Positions 1-40,042 of a DNA stretch of 64,000 bases are shown piece by piece. This stretch comes from Caprimulgus europaeus (lineage: Eukaryota; Chordata; Aves; Caprimulgiformes; Caprimulgidae): contig OU015524.1 of NCBI GenBank assembly GCA_907165065.1, positions 30,814,795 through 30,878,794 on the forward strand, in the 5' to 3' direction. The notes under the pieces were generated by a model that saw only the letters and a list, made by a program, of their open reading frames with translations, made no database searches and was not told the origin of the DNA. Each line of letters opens with the position of its first letter. Positions within the stretch are counted from its first letter, which is position 1. Made by a program: the position numbers and the translations under genes.

Positions 1-992
1 TACCTCTAGTGCCGGGGCGAAACCCTAGTTCCACAACAGAAGTCCCTGGAGATACCCCTGCTACCGGGGCGGCACCCTAGTTCCACACCGAAAGTCCCTA
101 AGAGGAACCCTAGTTCCGGGGCGGAACCCTAGATCTATACCAAAAGTCCCTGGAGGTAGCCCTACTTCCGGGGTAGAACCGTAACTGCACACCGAAAGTC
201 CCTAGGGGTACCCCTGGTTCCGGGGCGGAACCCTAATTCCAGGCCGTACGTTTGTAGGGGTAGCCCTAGTTCCATAGCTGAACCCAAGTTCCACACTGGA
301 AGTTTGTAGAGATACCCCTACTTCTTGGGCAAACCCTTGTTCCAAACCAGAAGTCCCCAGGGGTGCCCCTAGTCCCGAGCGGAACCCTTGTTGCACAATG
401 GAAGTCCCTAGGGGTACCCCTAGTTCTGGGGCTGAACCCTAGTTTCATACCGGAAGTCCCTGGGCGTACCCCTACTTCTGTGGCCGAACCCTAGTTCCAC
501 ACAAAAAGTCCCTAGGTGTCCCCTACTTCTGGAGCAGAACCCTAGTTCCACACTGGAAATCCCTAGTGGTACCCCTACTTGTGGACTGGAACCCTAGTTC
601 TATACCGGAAGACCCTAGGGGTACCCCTACTGCCGGGGCAGAACCCTAGTTCCACACGGGAAGTCTGTAGGGGTACCCCTAATTCCGGGGCGGAACCCTA
701 ATTCCACACCGAAAGTCCTTAGGGGTACTCCTACTTCCAAAGCAAAACCCTGGTTCCACACCAGAAGTCCCTGGGGGTACCCCTTCTTGCGGGTCGGAAC
801 TCTGGTTCCACACTGCATGTCCCTGGGGGTACCCCTAGTTCCGGGGCGGAACCCCGGTTCCAGACTGGAAGTCCTTAGGGGTGGCCCTAGTTCCGGGGCA
901 GCACCCTAGTTCCACACCATAAGTCCCCAGAGACACACCTGGGGTACACCTACTTTGGGATTGAGCCCTAATTCCACACCAGGAAGTCCCCT
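1..992 (+). repeat. Array domain F1, forward-oriented 52-bp units
   Basis: All units read in the orientation CCCTAGTTCCACACC then GGAAGTCCC then TACCCCTA. The domain matches the later forward domain: position 1 corresponds to 6323, and TTCTGGGGCTGAACCC at 424 corresponds to 7111. The offset grows from 6322 to about 6427 to about 6687. The second copy therefore holds about 105 and then about 260 extra bases, close to two and five whole units. The domain ends in the palindromic junction centred at 992/993. Confidence 0.9.
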
Positions 993-1018
993 AGGGGACT
1001 TCCGGTGTGGAATTAGGG
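966..1018. repeat. Near-perfect palindrome at the F1-to-R1 flip
   Basis: Left arm 966-992 and right arm 993-1018 are inverted complements apart from one extra A in the left arm. The centre is CCCCTAGGGG, so there is no unpaired loop. The arms begin and end at CCCTAATTCC/GGAATTAGGG. Unit orientation changes exactly here. The same flip occurs at 7653-7707. Confidence 0.9.
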
Positions 1019-1996
1019 TTCTGCATTGGAAGGAAGGGTCCCCTCGGGACTTTATGTGTGGAAATGGGGTTCCGCTCCACAACTATGTGTACCCCTAGGG
1101 ACTTCCGCTGTGGAACTAGGATTTTGCTCCGGAAGTAGGGGTACCCTTGGGACTTCCGGTTTGGAACTAGGGTTCCACCTGGGAAGAAGGGGTACCCCTA
1201 CAAACTTCCGGTGTGGAAATAGGGTTTTGACCCCGAAGTAGGGGTTCCCCAAGAGACTTTTGATATAGAAGTAGGGTTTCGCCCCGGTAGTAGGGGTACC
1301 CCTACGGACTTCCGGTGTTGACCTTGGGTTCCCACCCAGAACTAGGGTTCCCCCTACGGACTTCCGGTGTGGAACTGGGGTTCCAGCCTGGAAGTAGGGG
1401 TACCCCCATGGACTTTTGGTGTGCAGCTAGGGTTCCGCCCCAGAACTAGGGGTACCTGTGGGGACTTCCAGTGTGGAACTATGGTTCCACTCCAGAACTA
1501 AGGTTACCACTACGGACTTCCGGTGTGGAATTAGGGTTCCGCTCCAGAACTAAGGGTACCACTACGGACTTCCGGTGTGGAATTACGGTTCCACTCAAGA
1601 AGTAGTGGTACCCCTAGGGACTTCTGGTGTTCAACTATGGTTTCCACCCCGAAAATAGAGGTACCCCTAGGGACTTTTTGTGTGCAAGTAGGGTTCCACC
1701 CAGGAACTAGGGGTCCTTATAGGGACTTCTGGTGTGGATCTAGGGTTCCGCTCTGGAAGTAGGGGTACCCCTACGGATTTCCAAAGTGCAATTAGGGTTC
1801 TGCCCAGGAAGTAGGCGTACCCCTACGGACTTCCGGTGGGGAACTAGGGTTCCTCCGTGGAAGTAGGGGTACGCTCAGGTACTTCCAATGTAGAAATAGG
1901 GTCCTGATCCCGAACTAGGGGTATCCCTATATATTTCGGTGTGGATCTAGGGTTTTGCTAGGGAAGTAGTGGTACCCCTAGGGTCTTCCGGTGTGG
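993..1996 (-). repeat. Array domain R1, reverse-oriented units
   Basis: Units read as the complement: GGACTTCCGGTGTGGAACTA, then GGGTTCCGCCCC, then GAAGTAGGGGTACCCC. The last ~590 bp (from GACTTTTGGTGTGCAGCT at 1411) is a diverged copy of the ends of R2 (from 4774) and R3 (from 9867). This copy has an extra unit near 1500-1560. Confidence 0.88.
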
Positions 1997-2175
1997 GGAA
2001 CCGCTACTTCCAGGGTGGAGCCCGAGTTGCACACTGGAAATTTGTAGGGGTACCATTAGTTCCGGAGCAGAATCCTAGTTTCACACCGGAAGTCCCCAAA
2101 GGTACCCTTACTTCCGGGAAGGAACCCTAGTTCCACACCAGAAGTCCCTAGTGGTACCCCTAGTTCTGGGGTGGA
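1997..2175 (+). repeat. Array domain F2, short forward block of about three units
   Basis: Starts at GGAACCGCTACTTCC, where the reverse run ends in CTTCCGGTGTGG. It carries TTTGTAGGGGTACCATTAG and CCCAAAGGTACCCTTACTTCC. The same block starts at 5286 and 10,401. It flips back to reverse at about 2175, in GGTGGAATTCCCGTGTGG; that flip is not shared with the other two copies. Confidence 0.85.
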
Positions 2176-5100
2176 ATTCCCGTGTGGAACTTGGGTTCTG
2201 CCCCAGAAGTAGGGGTACCCCTAGGGACTTCTGATGTTCAACTAGGGTTCCGCCCTGGAAGTAGGCGTACCTGTGGGGACTTCTGGTGTGGAACTAGGGT
2301 TCCGCTCCAGAAATAGGGGTACCCCTACGAGCTTCGGGTGTGGAACCAGGATGCTGCCCCAGTAGTAGGGGTACCTCTATGGACTTCCAGTGTTCAACTT
2401 GGGTTCCCCCCCAGATCTAGGGTTCCCCCTATAGACTTCTGGTGTGGAACTAGGTTTCTGCCCCGGAAGTGGGGGTACCCCTACGGATTTCTGAAGTGGA
2501 ATTAGAGTTCTGCCCAGGAAGTAGGGATACAGATATGGACTTCCAGTGTGGAACTAGGGTTCCGACCTGGGAGTAGGGTTCCCCCTAGAAACTTCCAGTG
2601 TGGAACTAGGGTTCTGCCCCAGAACTAGGGGTACCCCTAGGAAATTCCTGTGTGGAACTTGGGCTCTGCCCCGGAAGTAGGGGTACATCTAGATACTTCC
2701 AATGTGGAAGTAGGATTCTGCCCCGGCAGTAGGGGCACCCATTCATACTTCCGCTGTGGAATTAGCGTTCCACCCAAGAAGTATGGGTACCCCTAGGGAT
2801 GTTTGTTGTGGAACTGATGTTCTGCCCCGGAAGTAGAGGTACCCCTTCGGACTTCCGGAGTGGAAATAGGGTTCTGCCTTGGTAGTATCGGTACCTCTGG
2901 GGACTTCCGGTGTGGAACTAGAGTTTCGCCCAAGAAGCAGTGGTACCCCTAGGGACTTCTGGTGTTCAACTAGGGTTCTGCCCCAGAACTAGGGGTACCT
3001 CTAGGGAATTCCCGTGTGGAATTTGGGTTCCGCCCCAGAAGGAGGGATACCCCTATGGACATTTAGTGTGCAAGTAATGTTCTGCCCCGGCAGTAGGGGC
3101 ACCCTTTCCGGCTTCCGCTGTGGAATTAGCGTTCCGCCCGAGAAGTAGGGGTACCTCTATGGACTTCTGCTGTGGAACTAGGGTTCCACTCAAGAAGTAT
3201 GGATACGCCTAGGGATGTTCAGTGTGCAATTAGGGTTCTGCCCCGGAAGTAGCAGTACCTCTGGGGACTTTTGGTGTGCAACTAGGGTTCTGCCCCGGAA
3301 CTAAGGGTACCACTAGGGACTTCCGGTGTGGATCTAGGGTTCCGCTCTGGAAGTAGGGGTACCCCTACGGATTTCTGAAGTGGAAGTAGGGTTCTGCTCA
3401 GGAAGTACGCGTACCCCTACGTACTTCCAATGAGGAACGAGGGTTCCTCCGCGGAAGTAGGGGTACCACCAGGTACTTCCAATGTGTAAATAGGGTTCTG
3501 ACCCGGAACTAGTGGTATCCCTGTAACTTCCGGTGTGGATCTAGGGTTTTGCTAGGGAAGGAGTGTTCCCCCTACAGACTTCTGGTGTGGAACTAGGGTT
3601 CTGCCCCAGCAGTAGGGGTACCCCTACGGACTTCCGGTGCGGAACTGGGGTTTTGCCCAAGAAGTAGTGGTACCCCTAGGGACTTCTGATGTTCAACTAG
3701 GGTTCCGCCCTGGAACTAGGGGTATCTGTAAGGGACTTCCGGTGTGGAACTAGGGGTCCGCTCCAGAACTAGGGGTACCCCTACGGGCTTCCGATGTGGA
3801 ACCAGGGTTCTGTCCCGGTAATAGAGGTACCCTTAAGGACTTCCAGTGTTCAACCTGGGTTCCCCCCCAGAACTAGGGTTCCCCCTATAGACTTCTGGTG
3901 TGGAACTAGGTTTCTGCCCCAGAAGTAGGGGTACCCCCAGGGTCTTCCGATATAGAACTAGGCTTTCAGCCGGGAGTATGGGTACCTCTGGGAGCTTCCG
4001 GTGTGGAACTGCTGTTCAGTTCTGGAAGTAGGGCACCCCTGCAGATTTCCGATGTGGAACTAGGGTTCCTCTCCAGAAGTAAAGGTACCTGTGGGTACTT
4101 CCGGTATAGAACTAGCGTTCCGCCCTGGGAGTAGGGGTGCCCCCAGGGACTTTCAGTGTGGAACAAGAGGGTTCTGCCCCACAAGTAGGGGTACCCCTAG
4201 GGACTTCCGGTGTGGATCTAGGGTTCTGCAGTGAAAATAAGGGTACCCCTACTGACATCTGGTGTGAAACTAGGGTTCTGGTTTGGAAGTAGGGATACAC
4301 ATAAGGACTTCCGGTGTGGAACCAGGGTTCCGACCCGGGAGTAGGGTTCCCCCTAGAAACTTTCGGTGCGGAACTATGGTTCTGCCCCAGAACAAGGGGT
4401 ACCCATAGGGAATTCCCGTGTGGAACTTGGGTTCTGCCCCGGAAGGAGGGATACCCCTATGGACGTTTAGTGTGCAAGTAGTGTTCTTCCCCGGCAGTAG
4501 GGGCACCCTTTCAGGCTTCTGCTGTGGAATTAGCGTTCTGCCCAAGAAGTAGGGGTACCTCTATGGACTTCTGCTGTGGAACTAGGGTTCCACCTAAGAA
4601 ATATGGGTACGCCTAGGGTTGTTTGGTGTGGAACTAGGGTTCTGCCCCGGCAGTAGGGTTACCCCTACGGACTTCCGGTGCGGAACTGGGGTTTCACCCA
4701 AGAAGTAGTGGTACCCCTAGGGACTTCTGGTGTTCAACTAGGGTTGCGCCCTGAAAGTAGGGGTACCCCCAGGGACTTTTGGTGTGCAGCTGGGGTTCCG
4801 CCCCAGAACTAGGGGTACCTGTGGGGACTTCCAGTGTGGAACTAGGGTTCCGCTCCAGAACTAATGGTACCACTACGGACTTCCGGTGTGGAATTAGGGT
4901 TCCGCTCAAGAAGTAGTGGTACCCCTAGGAACTTCTGGTGTTCAACTATGGTTTCCACCCCGAAAATAGAGGTACCCCTAGGGACTTTTTGTGTGCAAGT
5001 AGGGTTCCACCCAGGAACTAGGGATCCTTATAGGGACTTCTGGTGTGGATCTAGGGTTCCGCTCTGGAAGTAGGGGTACCCCTACGGATTTCCAAAGTGC

Positions 5101-5285
5101 AATTAGGGTTCTGCCCAGGAAGTAGGCGTACCCCTACGGACTTCCGGTGGGGAACTAGGGTTCCTCCGCGGAAGTAGGGGTACGCTCAGGTACTTCCAAT
5201 ATATATAGGGTATCCCTATATGTTTCAGTGTGGATCTAGGTTTTTGCTAGGGAAGTAGTGGTACCCCTAGGGTCTTCCGGTGTGG
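2176..5285 (-). repeat. Array domain R2, reverse-oriented units
   Basis: About 3.1 kb of units all reading in the reverse orientation. It aligns with R3 at an offset near 5.1 kb: GGTTTGGAAGTAGGGATACA near 4275 matches the one near 9370, and both are followed by CCGACCCGGGAGTAG. The last ~510 bp is the shared higher-order end block. Confidence 0.87.
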
Positions 5286-7680
5286 GGAACCGCTACTTCC
5301 GGGGTGGAGCCCAAGTTGCACACTGGAAATTTGTAGGGGTACCATTAGTTCCAGAGCAGAATCCTAGTTTCACACCGGAAGTCCCCAAAGGTACCCTTAC
5401 TTCCGGGAAGGAACCCTAGTTCCACACCAGAAGTCCCTAGTGGTACCCCTAGTTCTGGGGTGGAACGCTGGTTCCACATTGGAACTCCCTAGGGGTACCC
5501 GTAGGGGTAGGGGTCCCTACTCCGTAAGGGTACCCCTAATTCCGGGGTGGAACCCTAGTTCCACACCAAACGTCCCCAGAGGTACTCCTACTTCTGGGAA
5601 GGAACCCTGGTCCCACATGAGAAGTCGCTAGGGGTACCCCTAGTTCTGAGGCTGAACCCTAGTTTCATACCGGAAGTCCCTGAGCGTACCCCTACTTCTG
5701 GAGCAGCACCCTGGTTCCACAGTGGAAATCCCTAGTGGTACCCCTACTTGTGGACTGGAACCCTAGTTCTATACTGGAAGACCCTAGGGGTACCCCTACT
5801 GCCGGGGCAGAACCCTAGTTCCACACCGAAAGTGCTTAGGGGCACTCCTACTTCCAAAGCAAAACCCTGGTTCCACACCAGAAGTCCCTGGGGGTACCCC
5901 TACTTGCGGGTCAGAACTCTAGTTCCACACTGCATGTCCCTGGGAGTACCCTTAGTTCCGGGGCGGAACCCCCCAGTTCCAGACCGGAAGTCCTTAGGGG
6001 TACCCCTAGTTCTGGGGCAGCACCCTAGTTCCACACCACAAGTCCCCAGAGGTACACCTGGGGTACACCTACTTCGGGATTGAGCTCTAGTTCCACACCG
6101 GAAGTCCCTGGGGGTACACCTCATTTCAGAGCGAAACCCTAGTTCCACACTAAAAGTCCCCAGGGGTACTCCTACTTCCAGGAAGGAACCCTAGTCCCAC
6201 ACGGGGAGTCCCTAGGGGTACCCCTAGTTCTGGGGCGGAACGCTAATTCCACTCCAAAAGTCCCTGGGTGGATCCCTAGTTCCAGAGCGGAACCCTAGTT
6301 CCACACCGAAAGTCCTTAGGGGTACCTCTAGTGCCGGGGCGAAACCCTAGTTCCACAACAGAAGTCCCTGGAGATACCCCTGCTACCGGGGCGGCACCCT
6401 AGTTCCACACCGAAAGTCCCTAAGAGGAACCCTAGTTCCGGGGCGGAACCCTAGATCTATACCAAAAGTCCCTGGAGGTAGCCCTACTTCCGGGGTAGAA
6501 CCGTAACTGCACACCGAAAGTCCCTAGGGGTACCCCTGGTTCCGGAGCGGAACCCTAATTCCAGGCCGTACGTTTGTAGGGGTAGCCCTAGTTCCGTAGC
6601 TGAACCCAAGTTCCACACTGGAAGTTTGTAGAGATACCCCTACTTCTTGGGCAAACCCTTGTTCCAAACCGGAAGTCAGTAGGGACACCCCTAGTTCTGG
6701 GGCAAAACCCTTGTTCCACACCGGAAGTCCCCAGGGTAATCCCTAGTTCTGGGGCGGAACACTAGTTTCACACCAAAAGTCCCTAGGGGTACCCCTAGTC
6801 CCGAGCGGAACCCTTGTTGCACAATGGAAGTCCCTAGATGTACCCCTACTTCCGGAGCGGAACCCTATTTCCACACCAGAAGTCTCTAGGGGTACGGCTA
6901 ACTTCTGGGGAGGAACCCTATTTCTCTACCGGAAGTCCCTAGGGGTACCCCTAGTTCTGGGGCAGAACACTGGTTCCACACCGGAACTCCCTAGGGGTAC
7001 CCCTACTTTTGGAGCGGAACCCTAGTTCCACACCAAAAGTCCCCAGAGGTACTCCTACTTCCGGGAAGGAACCCTGATCCCACATGAGAAGTCGCTAGGG
7101 GTACCCCTAGTTCTGGGGCTGAACCCTAGTTTCATACTGGAAGTCCCTGGGCGTACCCCTACTTCTGTGGCCGAACCCTAGTTCCACACAAAAAGTCCCT
7201 AAGTGTCCCCTACTTCTGGAGCAGCACCCTAGTTCCACACTGGAAATCCCTAGTGGTACCCCTACTTGTGGACTGGAACCCTAGTTCTATACCGGAAGAT
7301 CCTAGGGGTACCCCTACTGCCAGGGCAGAACCCTAGTTCCACACGGGAAGTCCGTAGGGGTACCCCTAATTCCGGGGCGGAACCCTAATTCCACACCGAA
7401 AGTCCTTAGGGGTACTCCTACTTCCAAAGCAAAACCCTGGTTCCACACCAGAAGTCCCTGGAGGTACCCCTACTTGCGGGTCGGAACTCTGGTTCCACAC
7501 TGCATGTCCCTGGGGGTACCCCTAGTTCCGGGGCGGAACCTCGGTTCCAGACCGGAAGTACTTAGGGGTGGCCCTAGTTCCGGGGCAGCACCCTAGTTCC
7601 ACACCATAAGTCCCCAGAGACACACCTGGGGTACACCTACTTCGGGATTGAGCCCTAATTCCACACCAGGAAGTCCCCCT
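5286..7680 (+). repeat. Array domain F3, forward-oriented units
   Basis: Starts with the same block as F2 but continues forward for 2.4 kb. It contains two copies of the sub-block that begins TTCTG(A/G)GGCTGAACCC, at 5644 and 7111; F1 has it at 424. Each sub-block ends with CACCTGGGGTACACCTACTT (near 932, 6054 and 7622). In the copies at 932 and 7622 the palindromic flip follows at once. In the copy at 6054 the forward array simply continues. Around 5490-5535 there is an irregular stretch rich in TAGGGG. Confidence 0.87.
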
Positions 7681-7707
7681 CGGGGACTTCCTGGTGTGGA
7701 ATTAGGG
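7653..7707. repeat. Perfect 26-bp inverted repeat with 3-nt loop at the F3-to-R3 flip
   Basis: The left arm 7653-7678 begins CCCTAATTCCACACC and ends GAAGTCCCC. The right arm 7682-7707 is its exact reverse complement. The spacer is CTC (7679-7681). This is the duplicated counterpart of the palindrome at 966-1018. It could extrude as a stable hairpin or cruciform. Confidence 0.95.
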
Positions 7708-10400
7708 TTCTGCTTTGGAAGGAAGGGTCCCCTCGGGACTTTATGTGTGGAAATGGGGTTCCGCTCCACAACTATGTGTACCCCTAGGGACTTCCGCTGT
7801 GGAACTAGGATTTTGCTCCGGAAGTAGGGGTACCCTTGGGACTTCCGGTTTGGAACTAGGGTTCCACCTGGGAAGAAGGGGTACCCCTATAAACTTCCGG
7901 TGTGGAAATAGGGTTTTGACCCCGAAGTAGGGGTTCCCCAAGAGACTTTCGATATAGAAGTAGGGTTTTGCCCCGGTAGTAGGGGTACCCCTACGGACTT
8001 CCGGTGTGGAACCAGATTGCCGCCCCGGTAGTAGGGGTACCCTTACGGGCTTCCGGTGTTGACCTTGGGTTCCCACCCAGAACTAGTGTTCCCCCTACGG
8101 ACTTCCGGTGTGGAACTAGGGTTCTGCCCCGGAACTAGGGGTATCTGTAAGGGACTTCCGGTGTGGAACTAGGGTTCTGCTCTGGAAATATGGGTACCCC
8201 TACGAGCTTCAGGTGTGGAACCAGGGTACCGCCCCGGTAGTAGGGGTACCCCTAGGGACTTCCAGTGTTCAACTTGGGTTCCCACCCAGAACTAGGGTTC
8301 CCCTACAGACTTCTGATGTTGAACTAGGTTTTCACCCCAGAAGAAGGGGTACCCCTACGGATTTCTGAAGTGGAATTAGGGTTCTGCCCAGGAAGTAGGG
8401 ATACAGATATGGACTTCCGATGTGGAACTAGGGTTCTGACCCGGGAGTAGGGTTCCCCCTAGAAACTTCCGGTGCGGAACTAGGGTTCTGCCCCAGAACT
8501 AGGGGTACCCCTAGGGAATTCCCGTGTGGAACTTGGGTTCTGCCCTGGAAGTAGGGGTACATCTAGGTACTTCCAATGTGGAAGTAGGGTTCTGCCCCGG
8601 CAGTAGGGGTGCCCATTCATACTTCCGCTGTGGAATTAGCGTTCCACCCAAGAAGTATGGGTACCCCTAGGGATATTTGTTGTGGAACTAATGTTCTGCC
8701 CCAGAAGTAGGGATACCCCTTCGGACTTCCGCAGTGGAAATAGGGTTCTGCCTTGGTAGTATAGGTACCTCTGGGGACTTCCGGTATGGAATTAGCGTTC
8801 TGCCCGAGAAGTAGGGGTACCTCTATGGACTTCTGCTGTGGAACTAGGGTTCCACTTAAGAAGTATGGGTACCCCTAGGGATGTTCAGTGTGCAATTAGG
8901 GTTCTGCCCCAGAAGTAGCAATACCTCTGGGGACTTCCAGTGTGCAACTAGGGTTCCACCCCGGAACTAGGGGTACCTGTGGGGACTTGCGGTGTGCAGC
9001 TAGGGTTCCGCTCCAGAACTAAGGGTAACACTACGGACTTCCGGTGTGGAATTAGAGTTCCACCCAAGAAGTAGTGGTACCTCTAGGGACTTCTGGTGTG
9101 CATCTAGGGTTCCGCTCTGGAAGTAGGGGTACGCCTACGGATTTCTGAAGTGGAATTAGGGTTCTGCCCAGGAAGTAAGCGTACCCCTACGGACTTCCCA
9201 TGAGGAATTAGGGTTCCGCTACGGAAGTAGGGGTACCGTCAGGTACTTCCAATGTGGAAATAGGGTTCTGATCCCAAACTAGGGGTATCCCTATAACTTC
9301 CGGTGTGGATCTAGGGTTTTGCTAGGGAAGGAGTGTTCCCCCTACAGACTTCTGGTGTGGAACTAGGGTTCTGGTTTGGAAGTAGGGATACACATACGGA
9401 CTTCCGGTGTGGAACTAGGGTTCCGACCCGGGAGTAGAGTTCCCCATAGAAACGTCCGGTGCGGAACTAGGGTTCTGCCCTAGAACTAGGGGTACCCCTA
9501 GGGAATTCCCGTGTGGAATTTGGGTTCTGCCCCGGAAGGAGGGATACCCCTGTGGACGTTTAGTGTGCAAGTAGTGTTCTGCCCCAGCAGTAGGGGCACC
9601 CTTTCAGGCATCCACTGTGGAATTAGTGTTCTGCCTGAGAAGTAGGGGTACCTCTATGGACTTCTGCTGTGGAACTAGGGTTCCACCTAAGAAGTATGGG
9701 TATGCCTAGGGTTGTTTGGTGTGGGACTAGGGTTCTGCCCCGGCAGTAGGGTTACCCCTATGGACTTCCGGTGCGGAACTGGTGTTTCACCCAAGAAGTA
9801 GTGGTACCCCTAGGGACTTCTGGTGTTCAACTAGGGTTCCGCCCTGGAAGTAGGGGTACCCCCAGGGACTTTTGGTGTGCAGCTAGGGTTCCGCCCCAGA
9901 ACTAGGGGTACCTGTGGGGACTTCCAGTGTGGAACTAGGGTTCCACTCCAGAACTAAGGGTACCACTACGGACTTCCGGTGTGGAATTAGGGTTCCACTC
10001 AAGAAGTAGTGGTACCCCTAGGGACTTCTGGTGTTCAACTATGGTTTCCACCCCGAAAATAGAGGTACCCCTAGGGACTTTTTGTGTGCAAGTAGGGTTC
10101 CACCCAGGAACTAGGGATCCTTATAGGGACTTCTGGTGTGGATCTAGGGTTCCGCTCTGGAAGTAGGGGTACCCCTACGGATTTCCAAAGTGCAATTAGG
10201 GTTCTGCCCAGGAAGTAGGCGTACCCTTACGGACTTCCGGTGGGGAACTAGGGTTCCTCCACGGAAGTAGGGATACGCTCAGGTACTTCCAATGTGGAAA
10301 TAGGGTTCTGATCCCGAACTAGGGGTATCCCTATATATTTCGGTGTGGATCTAGGGTTTTGCTAGGGAAGTAGTGGTACCCCTAGGGTCTTCCGGTGTGG
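7681..10400 (-). repeat. Array domain R3, reverse-oriented units
   Basis: The first part copies R1: 1026-1240 matches 7715-7930 nearly base for base, at offset 6689. The rest follows R2, so R3 looks like a composite of an R1-like start and an R2-like end. The final ~530 bp is the third copy of the shared end block. Confidence 0.87.
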
Positions 10401-10596
10401 GGAACCGCTACTTCCAGGGTGGAGCCCGAGTTGCACACTGGAAATTTGTAGGGGTACCATTAGTTCCGGAGCAGAATCCTAGTTTCACACCGGAAGTCCC
10501 CAAAGGTACCCTTACTTCCGGGAAGGAACCCTAGTTCCACACCAGAAGTCCCTAGTGGTACCCTTACGTCGGGGGCGTAGCCCTGGTTCCACACCG
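10401..10596 (+). repeat. Array domain F4, short forward block
   Basis: Third copy of the block starting GGAACCGCTACTTCC. It is nearly identical to 1997-2160 up to CCCTAGTGGTACCC, after which it diverges (CTTACGTCGGGGGCG). Confidence 0.83.
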
Positions 10597-10660
10597 AGTA
10601 GCGTTCCCCCTAGAGACATCCGGTGTGGAACTAGGGGTCTGCCCTGGAAGTACGGGTACT
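10597..10660 (-). repeat. Terminal reverse unit and array edge
   Basis: One last unit in reverse orientation (ACATCCGGTGTGGAACTAGG, then CCCTGGAAGTACGGGTAC). The sequence then changes within a few bases to unrelated AT-rich DNA (GGGGCCCTTTGTGG and on). The edge position is accurate to about 10 bp. Confidence 0.75.
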
Positions 10661-11484
10661 GTGGGGCCCTTTGTGGAAACAAAGGAGCATAATTTTCACA
10701 TTAATAGAGTAATTTATCATATAAGGAGCTGCTTTATGTCCATAGTTCATCTAATTTGTTTGGTATTTTATAGATAAATATACTGTGGTCTGTTTCCATT
10801 TTCTACTGACATTTCTTGCTCAGTTTTTTATATATGTGTACTGAGAATTGAATGTCACAATTAAAATGCATCTCACTGTCGTTAGGAAAAGTGTGCATTT
10901 GTCCTGAGTGTAATTAGGGAGATAATTGTTATCTGGAGACATGAGTGACCTGTTGTTATCTGTTCTGGAGATATTTCTTCCTAGCTGCATTTGATGCTCC
11001 CCTGCTCTTGTTTTGGCAAAGGTGATCAGCAGAGTTAGGGGCTGAGTCATTTTGATTAAGTAGACAGTCGTACTACTTCTGTGATGCTGAGAATATTTTT
11101 CTTTATCACAGCTACTACTTAAATACTTAAAGGGAATCTTTAAGAAATTGCTTTTGTATGAACATGAATTTCAGCAGATAATGTTAGCAAAATTATTTCT
11201 AACTGTTCTTTGACAAACAAAACAACTGAAGCTATTTTTGAAGTTTTTTTTCTTGAAGTATATATATACATTGAGTTCATTACTTTAAAGTATTATTTTA
11301 AGTTTTTTTATGGTATCAGATATGTTTAGTATTTATATTGATTACACATAATTTCTGTATGTAAAACCTGCTTCAAGAGAGGGTTATTTTAAGGTTTTGA
11401 TACAAGTATTGACTATAGTTTTTAATCACATTGTGTCTGTGTGATCCTAGGTCGGTGTAGCTTCCAAGTTATATTATAGTAAAT
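10661..11484. other. AT-rich single-copy DNA, no gene seen
   Basis: Composition drops sharply from the GC-rich array. It contains TATATATATA near 11,260 and T-rich runs. No exon, repeat family or RNA gene is recognisable. Confidence 0.6.
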
Positions 11485-39978: not shown

Positions 39979-39985
39979 GATAGAC

Positions 39986-40023
<38 letters not shown>

Positions 40024-40042
40024 GTAGATAGATAGATAGATA
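39979..40042 (+). repeat. (GATA)n microsatellite, about 16 units
   Basis: Tetranucleotide GATA repeats, interrupted by GACA near the start and GGTA at about 40,022. Likely length-polymorphic. Confidence 0.95.

What the first reader, a model, noticed from the sequence alone, without database searches (positions are those of the whole stretch)
1..10660. Satellite array whose 52-bp units switch strand in blocks
The unit orientation flips at about 992, 1997, 2175, 5285, 7680, 10,400 and 10,596, giving alternating forward and reverse domains from about 65 bp to 3.1 kb. Most tandem satellites are head-to-tail. Repeated inversion with homogenised domains suggests amplification through palindromic intermediates, fold-back replication or inverted duplication. 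I do not recognise the unit as a named avian satellite.
Basis: partly seen in the sequence, partly recalled or inferred. Interest (0 to 1): 0.72.

Follow-up and report, generated by a model that had tools for sequence, protein, structure and literature searches.

The report
Old bird satellite with inherited strand flips
A 13-kb block of 52-base repeats in what looks like a bird chromosome really does alternate in direction, but the flips look mostly like copies of a few older junctions, one of them shared with other chromosomes, rather than repeated new inversions.

Summary
The array starts 2,460 bp upstream of the window and is 13.1 kb long.

"Repeated inversion" is mostly not supported here. 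The blocks are copies of a larger repeat. The reverse-to-forward junction occurs three times in the window and, at the same base, on contigs C7, C73, C39 and C22; 0 of 150 chimeric controls reach its score at each. The forward-to-reverse junction occurs twice (97.8% over 601 bp). The flip at 2177 fits a deletion; 10597 is unexplained.

Near contig ends, related arrays form tandem macro-units of about 5.5-7.4 kb, each an inverted pair of 52-bp arrays around a spacer. The window looks like an older interstitial piece of this family.

Strand-mosaic satellites are known: PO41 in chicken and quail, human beta and HSat arrays. A Foldback-transposon reading fails. Fold-back amplification stays possible elsewhere in the family.

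The parts
1..987 (+). forward 52-bp array block (continues 2,460 bp upstream of the window)
988..1994 (-). reverse 52-bp array block; 401-1902 matches 7088-8590 at 89%, spanning the F-to-R junction
982..1003 (.). F-to-R junction, copy 1 (11-bp perfect arms)
1895..2095 (.). R-to-F junction, copy 1 (switch at 1995)
1995..2176 (+). short forward block; 1919-2176 matches 5208-5465 at 97.7%
2177..5283 (-). reverse block; 2177-3363 matches 8051-9237 at 85%, 4246-5200 matches 9339-10293 at 96%; the join at 2176/2177 is read as a deletion fusion
5184..5384 (.). R-to-F junction, copy 2 (switch at 5284)
5284..7675 (+). forward block (one ambiguous 14-bp reverse call at 5504-5517)
7653..7707 (.). F-to-R junction, copy 2: palindrome with 27-bp arms (one mismatch) centred at 7680
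7676..10398 (-). reverse block
10299..10499 (.). R-to-F junction, copy 3 (switch at 10399)
10399..10596 (+). short forward block at the array edge
10597..10659 (-). last reverse unit; right edge of the array; this switch is unexplained

Best explanation
The window holds an old, diverged interstitial block of a satellite family, probably of a bird, whose larger repeat unit consists of two 52-bp arrays in opposite orientation. An early strand switch or switches made two junctions: a palindromic F-to-R junction and an R-to-F junction. DNA containing the R-to-F junction was duplicated within this block and is present on at least four other contigs (shown). Local duplication plus internal deletion then gave most of today's seven flips (shown for five, inferred for 2177, open for 10597). 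Related macro-units with other junctions form tandem arrays near contig ends and are very similar between contigs, presumably through unequal exchange and ectopic recombination (inferred). How the first flip arose is inferred: most likely hairpin or template-switch synthesis, of which the palindrome at 7680 may be a trace. No function is shown; transcripts from both strands, as reported for PO41, are only a possibility.
For: The R-to-F junction is shared at the same base, without a gap at the switch, by 3 sites here and by C7, C73, C39 and C22. A 200-bp piece across it matches those four at 88.5-89.5% over its whole length (258-267 bits); 0 of 150 chimeric controls reach that at any of the four (control maxima 151-175 bits). 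The F-to-R junctions at 988 and 7676 are 97.8% identical over 601 bp. At 2177 the left side is identical over 60 of 60 bases to 5406-5465, where the forward block continues, and the right side matches 8051-9237 at 85%. Near-end stretches of C8, C14 and C11 alternate F-spacer-R; their 17 R-to-F and 17 F-to-R junctions cluster as one family each. Neighbouring units on C8 are 99.6% identical over 4,486 bp. Forward and reverse units share one consensus.
Against: The F-to-R junction is only suggestively shared with other contigs: its score is reached by 2 of 150 controls at C73, 11 of 150 at C22 and 54 of 150 at the C4 locus L018, and by 132-150 of 150 at the other eight loci. The R-to-F junction was not found in the one stretch tested from each of C5, C21, C8, C14 and C11 nor in the two from C4; C41 was not tested. 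So the tie between this block and the near-end arrays rests on the common 52-bp unit. In 8 kb of C41 the sampled unit (about 3.6 kb) is almost wholly in one orientation, although a 5-kb stretch of the same contig has a 1-kb reverse block. The first 124 bp right of 2177 match their proposed source at only 69% without gaps. The one answered genome search scored 40 of 1,582 first-look candidates and lists only part of 425 matches, so the genome-wide number of junctions is unknown.
Confidence: 0.75

Rival explanations
1. Recurrent independent inversions within the array, through palindromic intermediates or fold-back replication.
For: A palindrome with 27-bp arms sits at 7680. Inverted arms at C73 (99.3% over 807 bp) and C22 (98.9% over 816 bp) are much more alike than the best C73-C22 matches of the C73 arm (about 84%), which points to recent inverted duplication or arm-to-arm conversion there. 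Seven of 57 strand-switch calls stayed single in the clustering.
Against: In the window five of the seven flips are copies of two junctions and a sixth fits a deletion. Arms next to six window junctions are only 70-83% alike. The C22 forward arm also matches the C39 reverse block at 97.5%, so its likeness to its own partner (98.9%) is not much above that between contigs.
Confidence: 0.12
2. A Foldback-like transposon: long inverted terminal repeats made of short tandem units around a core, dispersed by transposition.
For: C21, C5, C8, C14 and C11 show forward array, non-52-bp spacer, reverse array.
Against: At the five interstitial loci with both edges in hand, direct flank matches do not exceed random pairs by local alignment (P 0.14 to 0.99, 300 pairs each); by longest exact word four of five also do not (P 0.44 to 0.92), the C2 locus being marginal with a 7-bp match (P 0.042). 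Array ends start at different points of the unit, and two loci (C7 and L017 on C4) begin in reverse orientation. No transposase search was run.
Confidence: 0.05
3. Assembly artefact: collapsed or mis-oriented repeat contigs.
For: Long tandem arrays are error-prone and reads were not available.
Against: No N in the window. Copies of the junctions differ from each other by 2-18% and the R-to-F junction recurs at other loci with the same breakpoint base.
Confidence: 0.05

Closest known systems
PO41, 41-bp subtelomeric satellite of chicken and Japanese quail (PMC4301066; passages and section 13 read)
   Same: Short-unit bird satellite at chromosome ends; that paper states that inverted copies appear within its arrays and that both strands are transcribed.
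   Different: 41-bp rather than 52-bp unit; I made no sequence comparison with PO41. The paper speaks of short inverted tracts; regular kilobase-scale inverted macro-units are not mentioned in what I read.
Human beta satellite and HSat arrays with 'a mosaic inversion structure' (PMC9186530; passages read)
   Same: Tandem satellite with blocks in both orientations.
   Different: Other host, and no sequence comparison made; the passage does not say how many ancestral junctions explain the pattern. A further paper on human centromeric satellites that I tried was not held.
Great-ape subterminal caps, satellite blocks with spacers (PMC12758386; passages read)
   Same: Satellite blocks interleaved with spacers at chromosome ends, with ectopic exchange and interstitial copies.
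   Different: 32-bp unit (abstract start) and shared spacer segments of 32-34 kb; the words 'inverted' and 'orientation' do not occur in that main text.
Foldback (FB) transposons of Drosophila (recalled, not looked up)
   Same: Inverted arms made of short tandem repeats.
   Different: No conserved ends and no convincing target-site duplications here.

Membership tests
Satellite DNA (tandem array of short units) | Many head-to-tail copies of a short unit | tested here: met
   197 units of 52 bp with at most 6 gaps extracted, head-to-tail within blocks; TRF period 52
Strand-mosaic satellite | Blocks of opposite orientation within one array | tested here: met
Subtelomeric satellite | Arrays at or near chromosome ends | tested here: inconclusive
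   Family: the C8 array runs to the contig end, and C11, C14 and C22 arrays lie within 100 kb of one. Contig ends were not shown to be telomeres: no TTAGGG x3 in the end pieces of C14, C11 and C22. The window's own block is interstitial (C2, 30.8 of 125.4 Mb).
PO41 | 41-bp unit | tested here: not met
   unit is 52 bp
PO41 | PO41 sequence | not tested
   no PO41 sequence was compared
Foldback transposon | Target-site duplications | tested here: not met
   5 of 5 loci no better than random by alignment (P 0.14-0.99); C2 marginal by longest word (P 0.042)
Foldback transposon | Conserved terminal sequence | tested here: not met
   Edges differ in unit phase and orientation (edges compared by eye)
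Foldback transposon | Associated transposase or autonomous partner | not tested
   no protein search was run
Centromeric satellite | CENP-A association or primary-constriction location | not testable with these tools
   no chromatin or cytogenetic data

The most novel reading that the evidence does not exclude
The family is a fold-back macrosatellite: near chromosome ends each unit of about 5.5-7.4 kb is an inverted pair of 52-bp arrays, and inverted copies are renewed by arm-to-arm exchange or inverted duplication, so that ends carry long inverted repeats that could form hairpins or give double-stranded RNA; the window is a fossil of an older version. For it: some inverted matches of 0.6-1.8 kb at 90-97% in near-end stretches and about 99% arms at C73 and C22. 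Against it: within 600 bp of six near-end R-to-F junctions the arms are only 73-77% alike, so the similar stretches are offset or lie in neighbouring units.
Probability: 0.15. Interest if true: 0.65.

Novelty: new variant of a known kind. Interest (0 to 1): 0.4.

Why it matters
If right, the strand pattern of a satellite can be read like a fossil: a junction shared at the same base by several chromosomes shows that large pieces containing the flip, not single monomers, were copied and dispersed. That makes the order of events (flip, amplify, disperse, decay) testable from junction sequences alone, in related species too.

Tried and rejected
Foldback transposon: rejected on edges and target-site duplications. 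Unit palindromicity as the cause of switching: the 52-bp consensus matches its own reverse complement at 28 of 52 positions, but 592 of 5,000 base shuffles and 685 of 5,000 two-base-block shuffles do as well, so it is not exceptional. Separate F and R subfamilies: the consensus sequences are identical and mean distances are FF 0.257, RR 0.270, FR 0.269; the small between-strand excess (0.0056, reached by 0 of 2,000 permutations) and the 182 of 197 nearest neighbours of the same orientation are what copied blocks give, since units are not independent. Rfam at gathering thresholds and bacterial-code ARAGORN: no match. One exact 32-base unit pattern in viral contigs: 0 matches. Five 13-base unit words in the paper library: 1 paper, on microRNA-21 in liver cancer by title. 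A search for a 52-bp inverted bird satellite gave 7 papers, none on bird satellites by title. Paper searches in all; I did not see this satellite named in those listings, but most subscription papers are not held. Read in passages only: the trogon satellitome (no '52 bp' in the main text), the chicken genome, a satellite review.

Short inverted matches between the outer flanks of the five interstitial arrays (P 0.007, 0.12, 0.04, 0.05, 0.14) may be decayed satellite at the edges; left unexplained.

Changed on checking: the number of stretches (19), the unit length range, the count of spacer singletons, and the probability of the novel case (0.2 to 0.15, because speaks against it).
Full report
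Observation. Tandem Repeats Finder finds the same period on alternating strands. The window lies at C2:30814795-30878794 of a 1.178-Gb assembly in 121 contigs. The array begins 2,460 bp upstream, so it runs 13.1 kb.

The blocks are copies. Self-comparison shows 401-1902 matching 7088-8590 at 89% across the forward-to-reverse junction, and 1343-2159 matching 9747-10563 at 94% and 1919-2176 matching 5208-5465 at 97.7% across the reverse-to-forward junction. Within 300 bp of the F-to-R switch the two copies are 97.8% identical. The switch at 2177 joins a left side identical over 60 of 60 bases to 5406-5465, where the forward block simply continues, to a right side that matches 8051-9237 at 85%. 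A deletion that removed an F-to-R junction explains it without a new inversion, but the first 124 bp of the right side match at only 69% without gaps, so the exact breakpoint is uncertain. The last switch, 10597, lies at the array edge and is unexplained; the clustering grouped it with 2177, which I did not check by eye.

One flip is shared with other contigs. The unit search reported 425 matches and scored 40 of 1,582 first-look candidates; the rows it lists fall on 12 contigs (C2, C4, C5, C7, C8, C11, C14, C21, C22, C39, C41, C73), and more were not listed. I fetched 27 stretches (20, 7), which touch all 12. The junction clustering used 19 stretches (the C2 array and L011-L028; the 7 came later). 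Of its 65 calls, 6 are same-strand gaps and 2 belong to the ambiguous 14-bp call. Of the other 57, 34 fall in two near-end families of 17 each, 7 in the R-to-F family of the window, 3 in an F-to-R family of C73, C22 and C4, 6 in three pairs, and 7 are single; three of the single ones are array-spacer-array junctions of C21, C73 and C5, and one (L024:9966) lies 34 bases from the end of its stretch. The window's R-to-F junction aligns at the same base with C7, C73, C39 and C22. A 200-bp piece across it scores 258-267 bits there at 88.5-89.5% identity, against maxima of 151-175 bits in 150 random R-F chimeras per locus. In the one stretch tested from each of C5, C21, C8, C14 and C11 and the two from C4 it is not found; C41 was not tested. 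The F-to-R junction is less certain: 2, 11 and 54 of 150 controls reach its score at C73, C22 and the C4 locus L018, and 132-150 of 150 at the other eight, although the reverse side shows shared differences by eye at C4 and C73.

Family architecture. On C8 (to the contig end), C14 and C11 the arrays alternate in tandem macro-units: forward array, spacer, reverse array. The spacer is an A- or T-rich stretch plus about 5.6 copies of a 55-bp repeat by Tandem Repeats Finder on C8 and C11, and reads alike by eye on C14, where the finder was not run; C8 and C11 show it in opposite orientations. Spacing between listed matches is about 5.3-5.6 kb on C8 and 5.9-7.4 kb on C14. Neighbouring units on C8 are 99.6% identical over 4,486 bp, and the best C8-C11 matches are 97-99% identical. 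C21 and C5 have a forward array, a spacer with 70-bp-type repeats (by finder on C21, by eye on C5) and a reverse array. C41 differs: in 8 kb a unit of about 3.6 kb is almost wholly in one orientation, and a 5-kb stretch of the same contig has a 1-kb reverse block. No run of three TTAGGG was found in the end pieces read from C14, C11 and C22 nor in the first 2 kb of C14; the first 2 kb of C8 reads as N, and the C8 array end was not scanned for it.

Palindromes. In the window the F-to-R junction is palindromic, with 27-bp arms (one mismatch) at 7680 and 11-bp arms at 993; an ungapped symmetric match of 142 bp per arm around 2186 is at about 81%, near the level of unrelated units. Within 600 bp of six window junctions arms match at 70-83%. 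At C73 and C22 inverted arms are 99.3% and 98.9% identical over about 0.8 kb. The best matches of the C73 arm on C22 are about 84%, but the C22 forward arm matches the C39 reverse block at 97.5%, close to its match with its own partner. Near-end stretches contain some inverted matches of 0.6-1.8 kb at 90-97%, yet directly beside six of their R-to-F junctions the arms are only 73-77% alike. Recent inverted duplication or arm-to-arm exchange is thus likely at some loci, but the picture is not a simple set of homogenised palindromes, and it does not apply to the present window.

Transposon test. Loci do not share termini by eye, and two of five interstitial loci with both edges start in reverse orientation. 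Direct flank matches are no better than random at 5 of 5 by local alignment; by longest exact word C2 is marginal (7 bp, P 0.042). Inverted flank matches are mildly enriched (P 0.007 to 0.14), possibly from decayed satellite at the edges.

Known relatives. PO41, the 41-bp subtelomeric satellite of chicken and quail, is reported to have inverted tracts within its arrays and transcripts from both strands (PMC4301066, passages and section 13). [quoted passage not shown]). Strand switching is therefore a known behaviour of satellites; the regular inverted macro-unit and the junction shared at one base by five contigs are what I did not see described in what I read. Function is untested.

Noticed in passing
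L013:3369-3951, L014:4018-4600, L015:6780-7362: A 583-bp insertion-like spacer clusters as one family at the same place in the satellite on three contigs; the L013 copy, the only one I read, looks LTR-like. These copies were probably duplicated after it inserted.
   Followed up: partly
L013:914-1852: The 939-bp spacer between a forward and a reverse array is itself an inverted-repeat element by eye; the inverted match 738-1144 x 2030-1624 covers its ends.
   Followed up: partly
L011:8480-9938 with L013, L014, L015: A match at about 82-83% between C21 and C73, C39 and C22 runs from the satellite about 850 bp into non-satellite flank.
   Followed up: no
L013:7736-10000: A 156-bp (3 x 52) higher-order array with 96% matches between copies.
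   Followed up: no
L029 and L030 (C14 end, C11 start): Another tandem repeat, period 290 bp at the C14 end; a GC-rich stretch of it is visible in inverse orientation at the C11 piece.
   Followed up: no
L010:7527-7536 and window 10666-10675: A 10-bp inverted match (CACAAAGGGC) lies just outside both edges of the array.
   Followed up: partly
window 39979-40042: GATA microsatellite, 16 copies.
   Followed up: no
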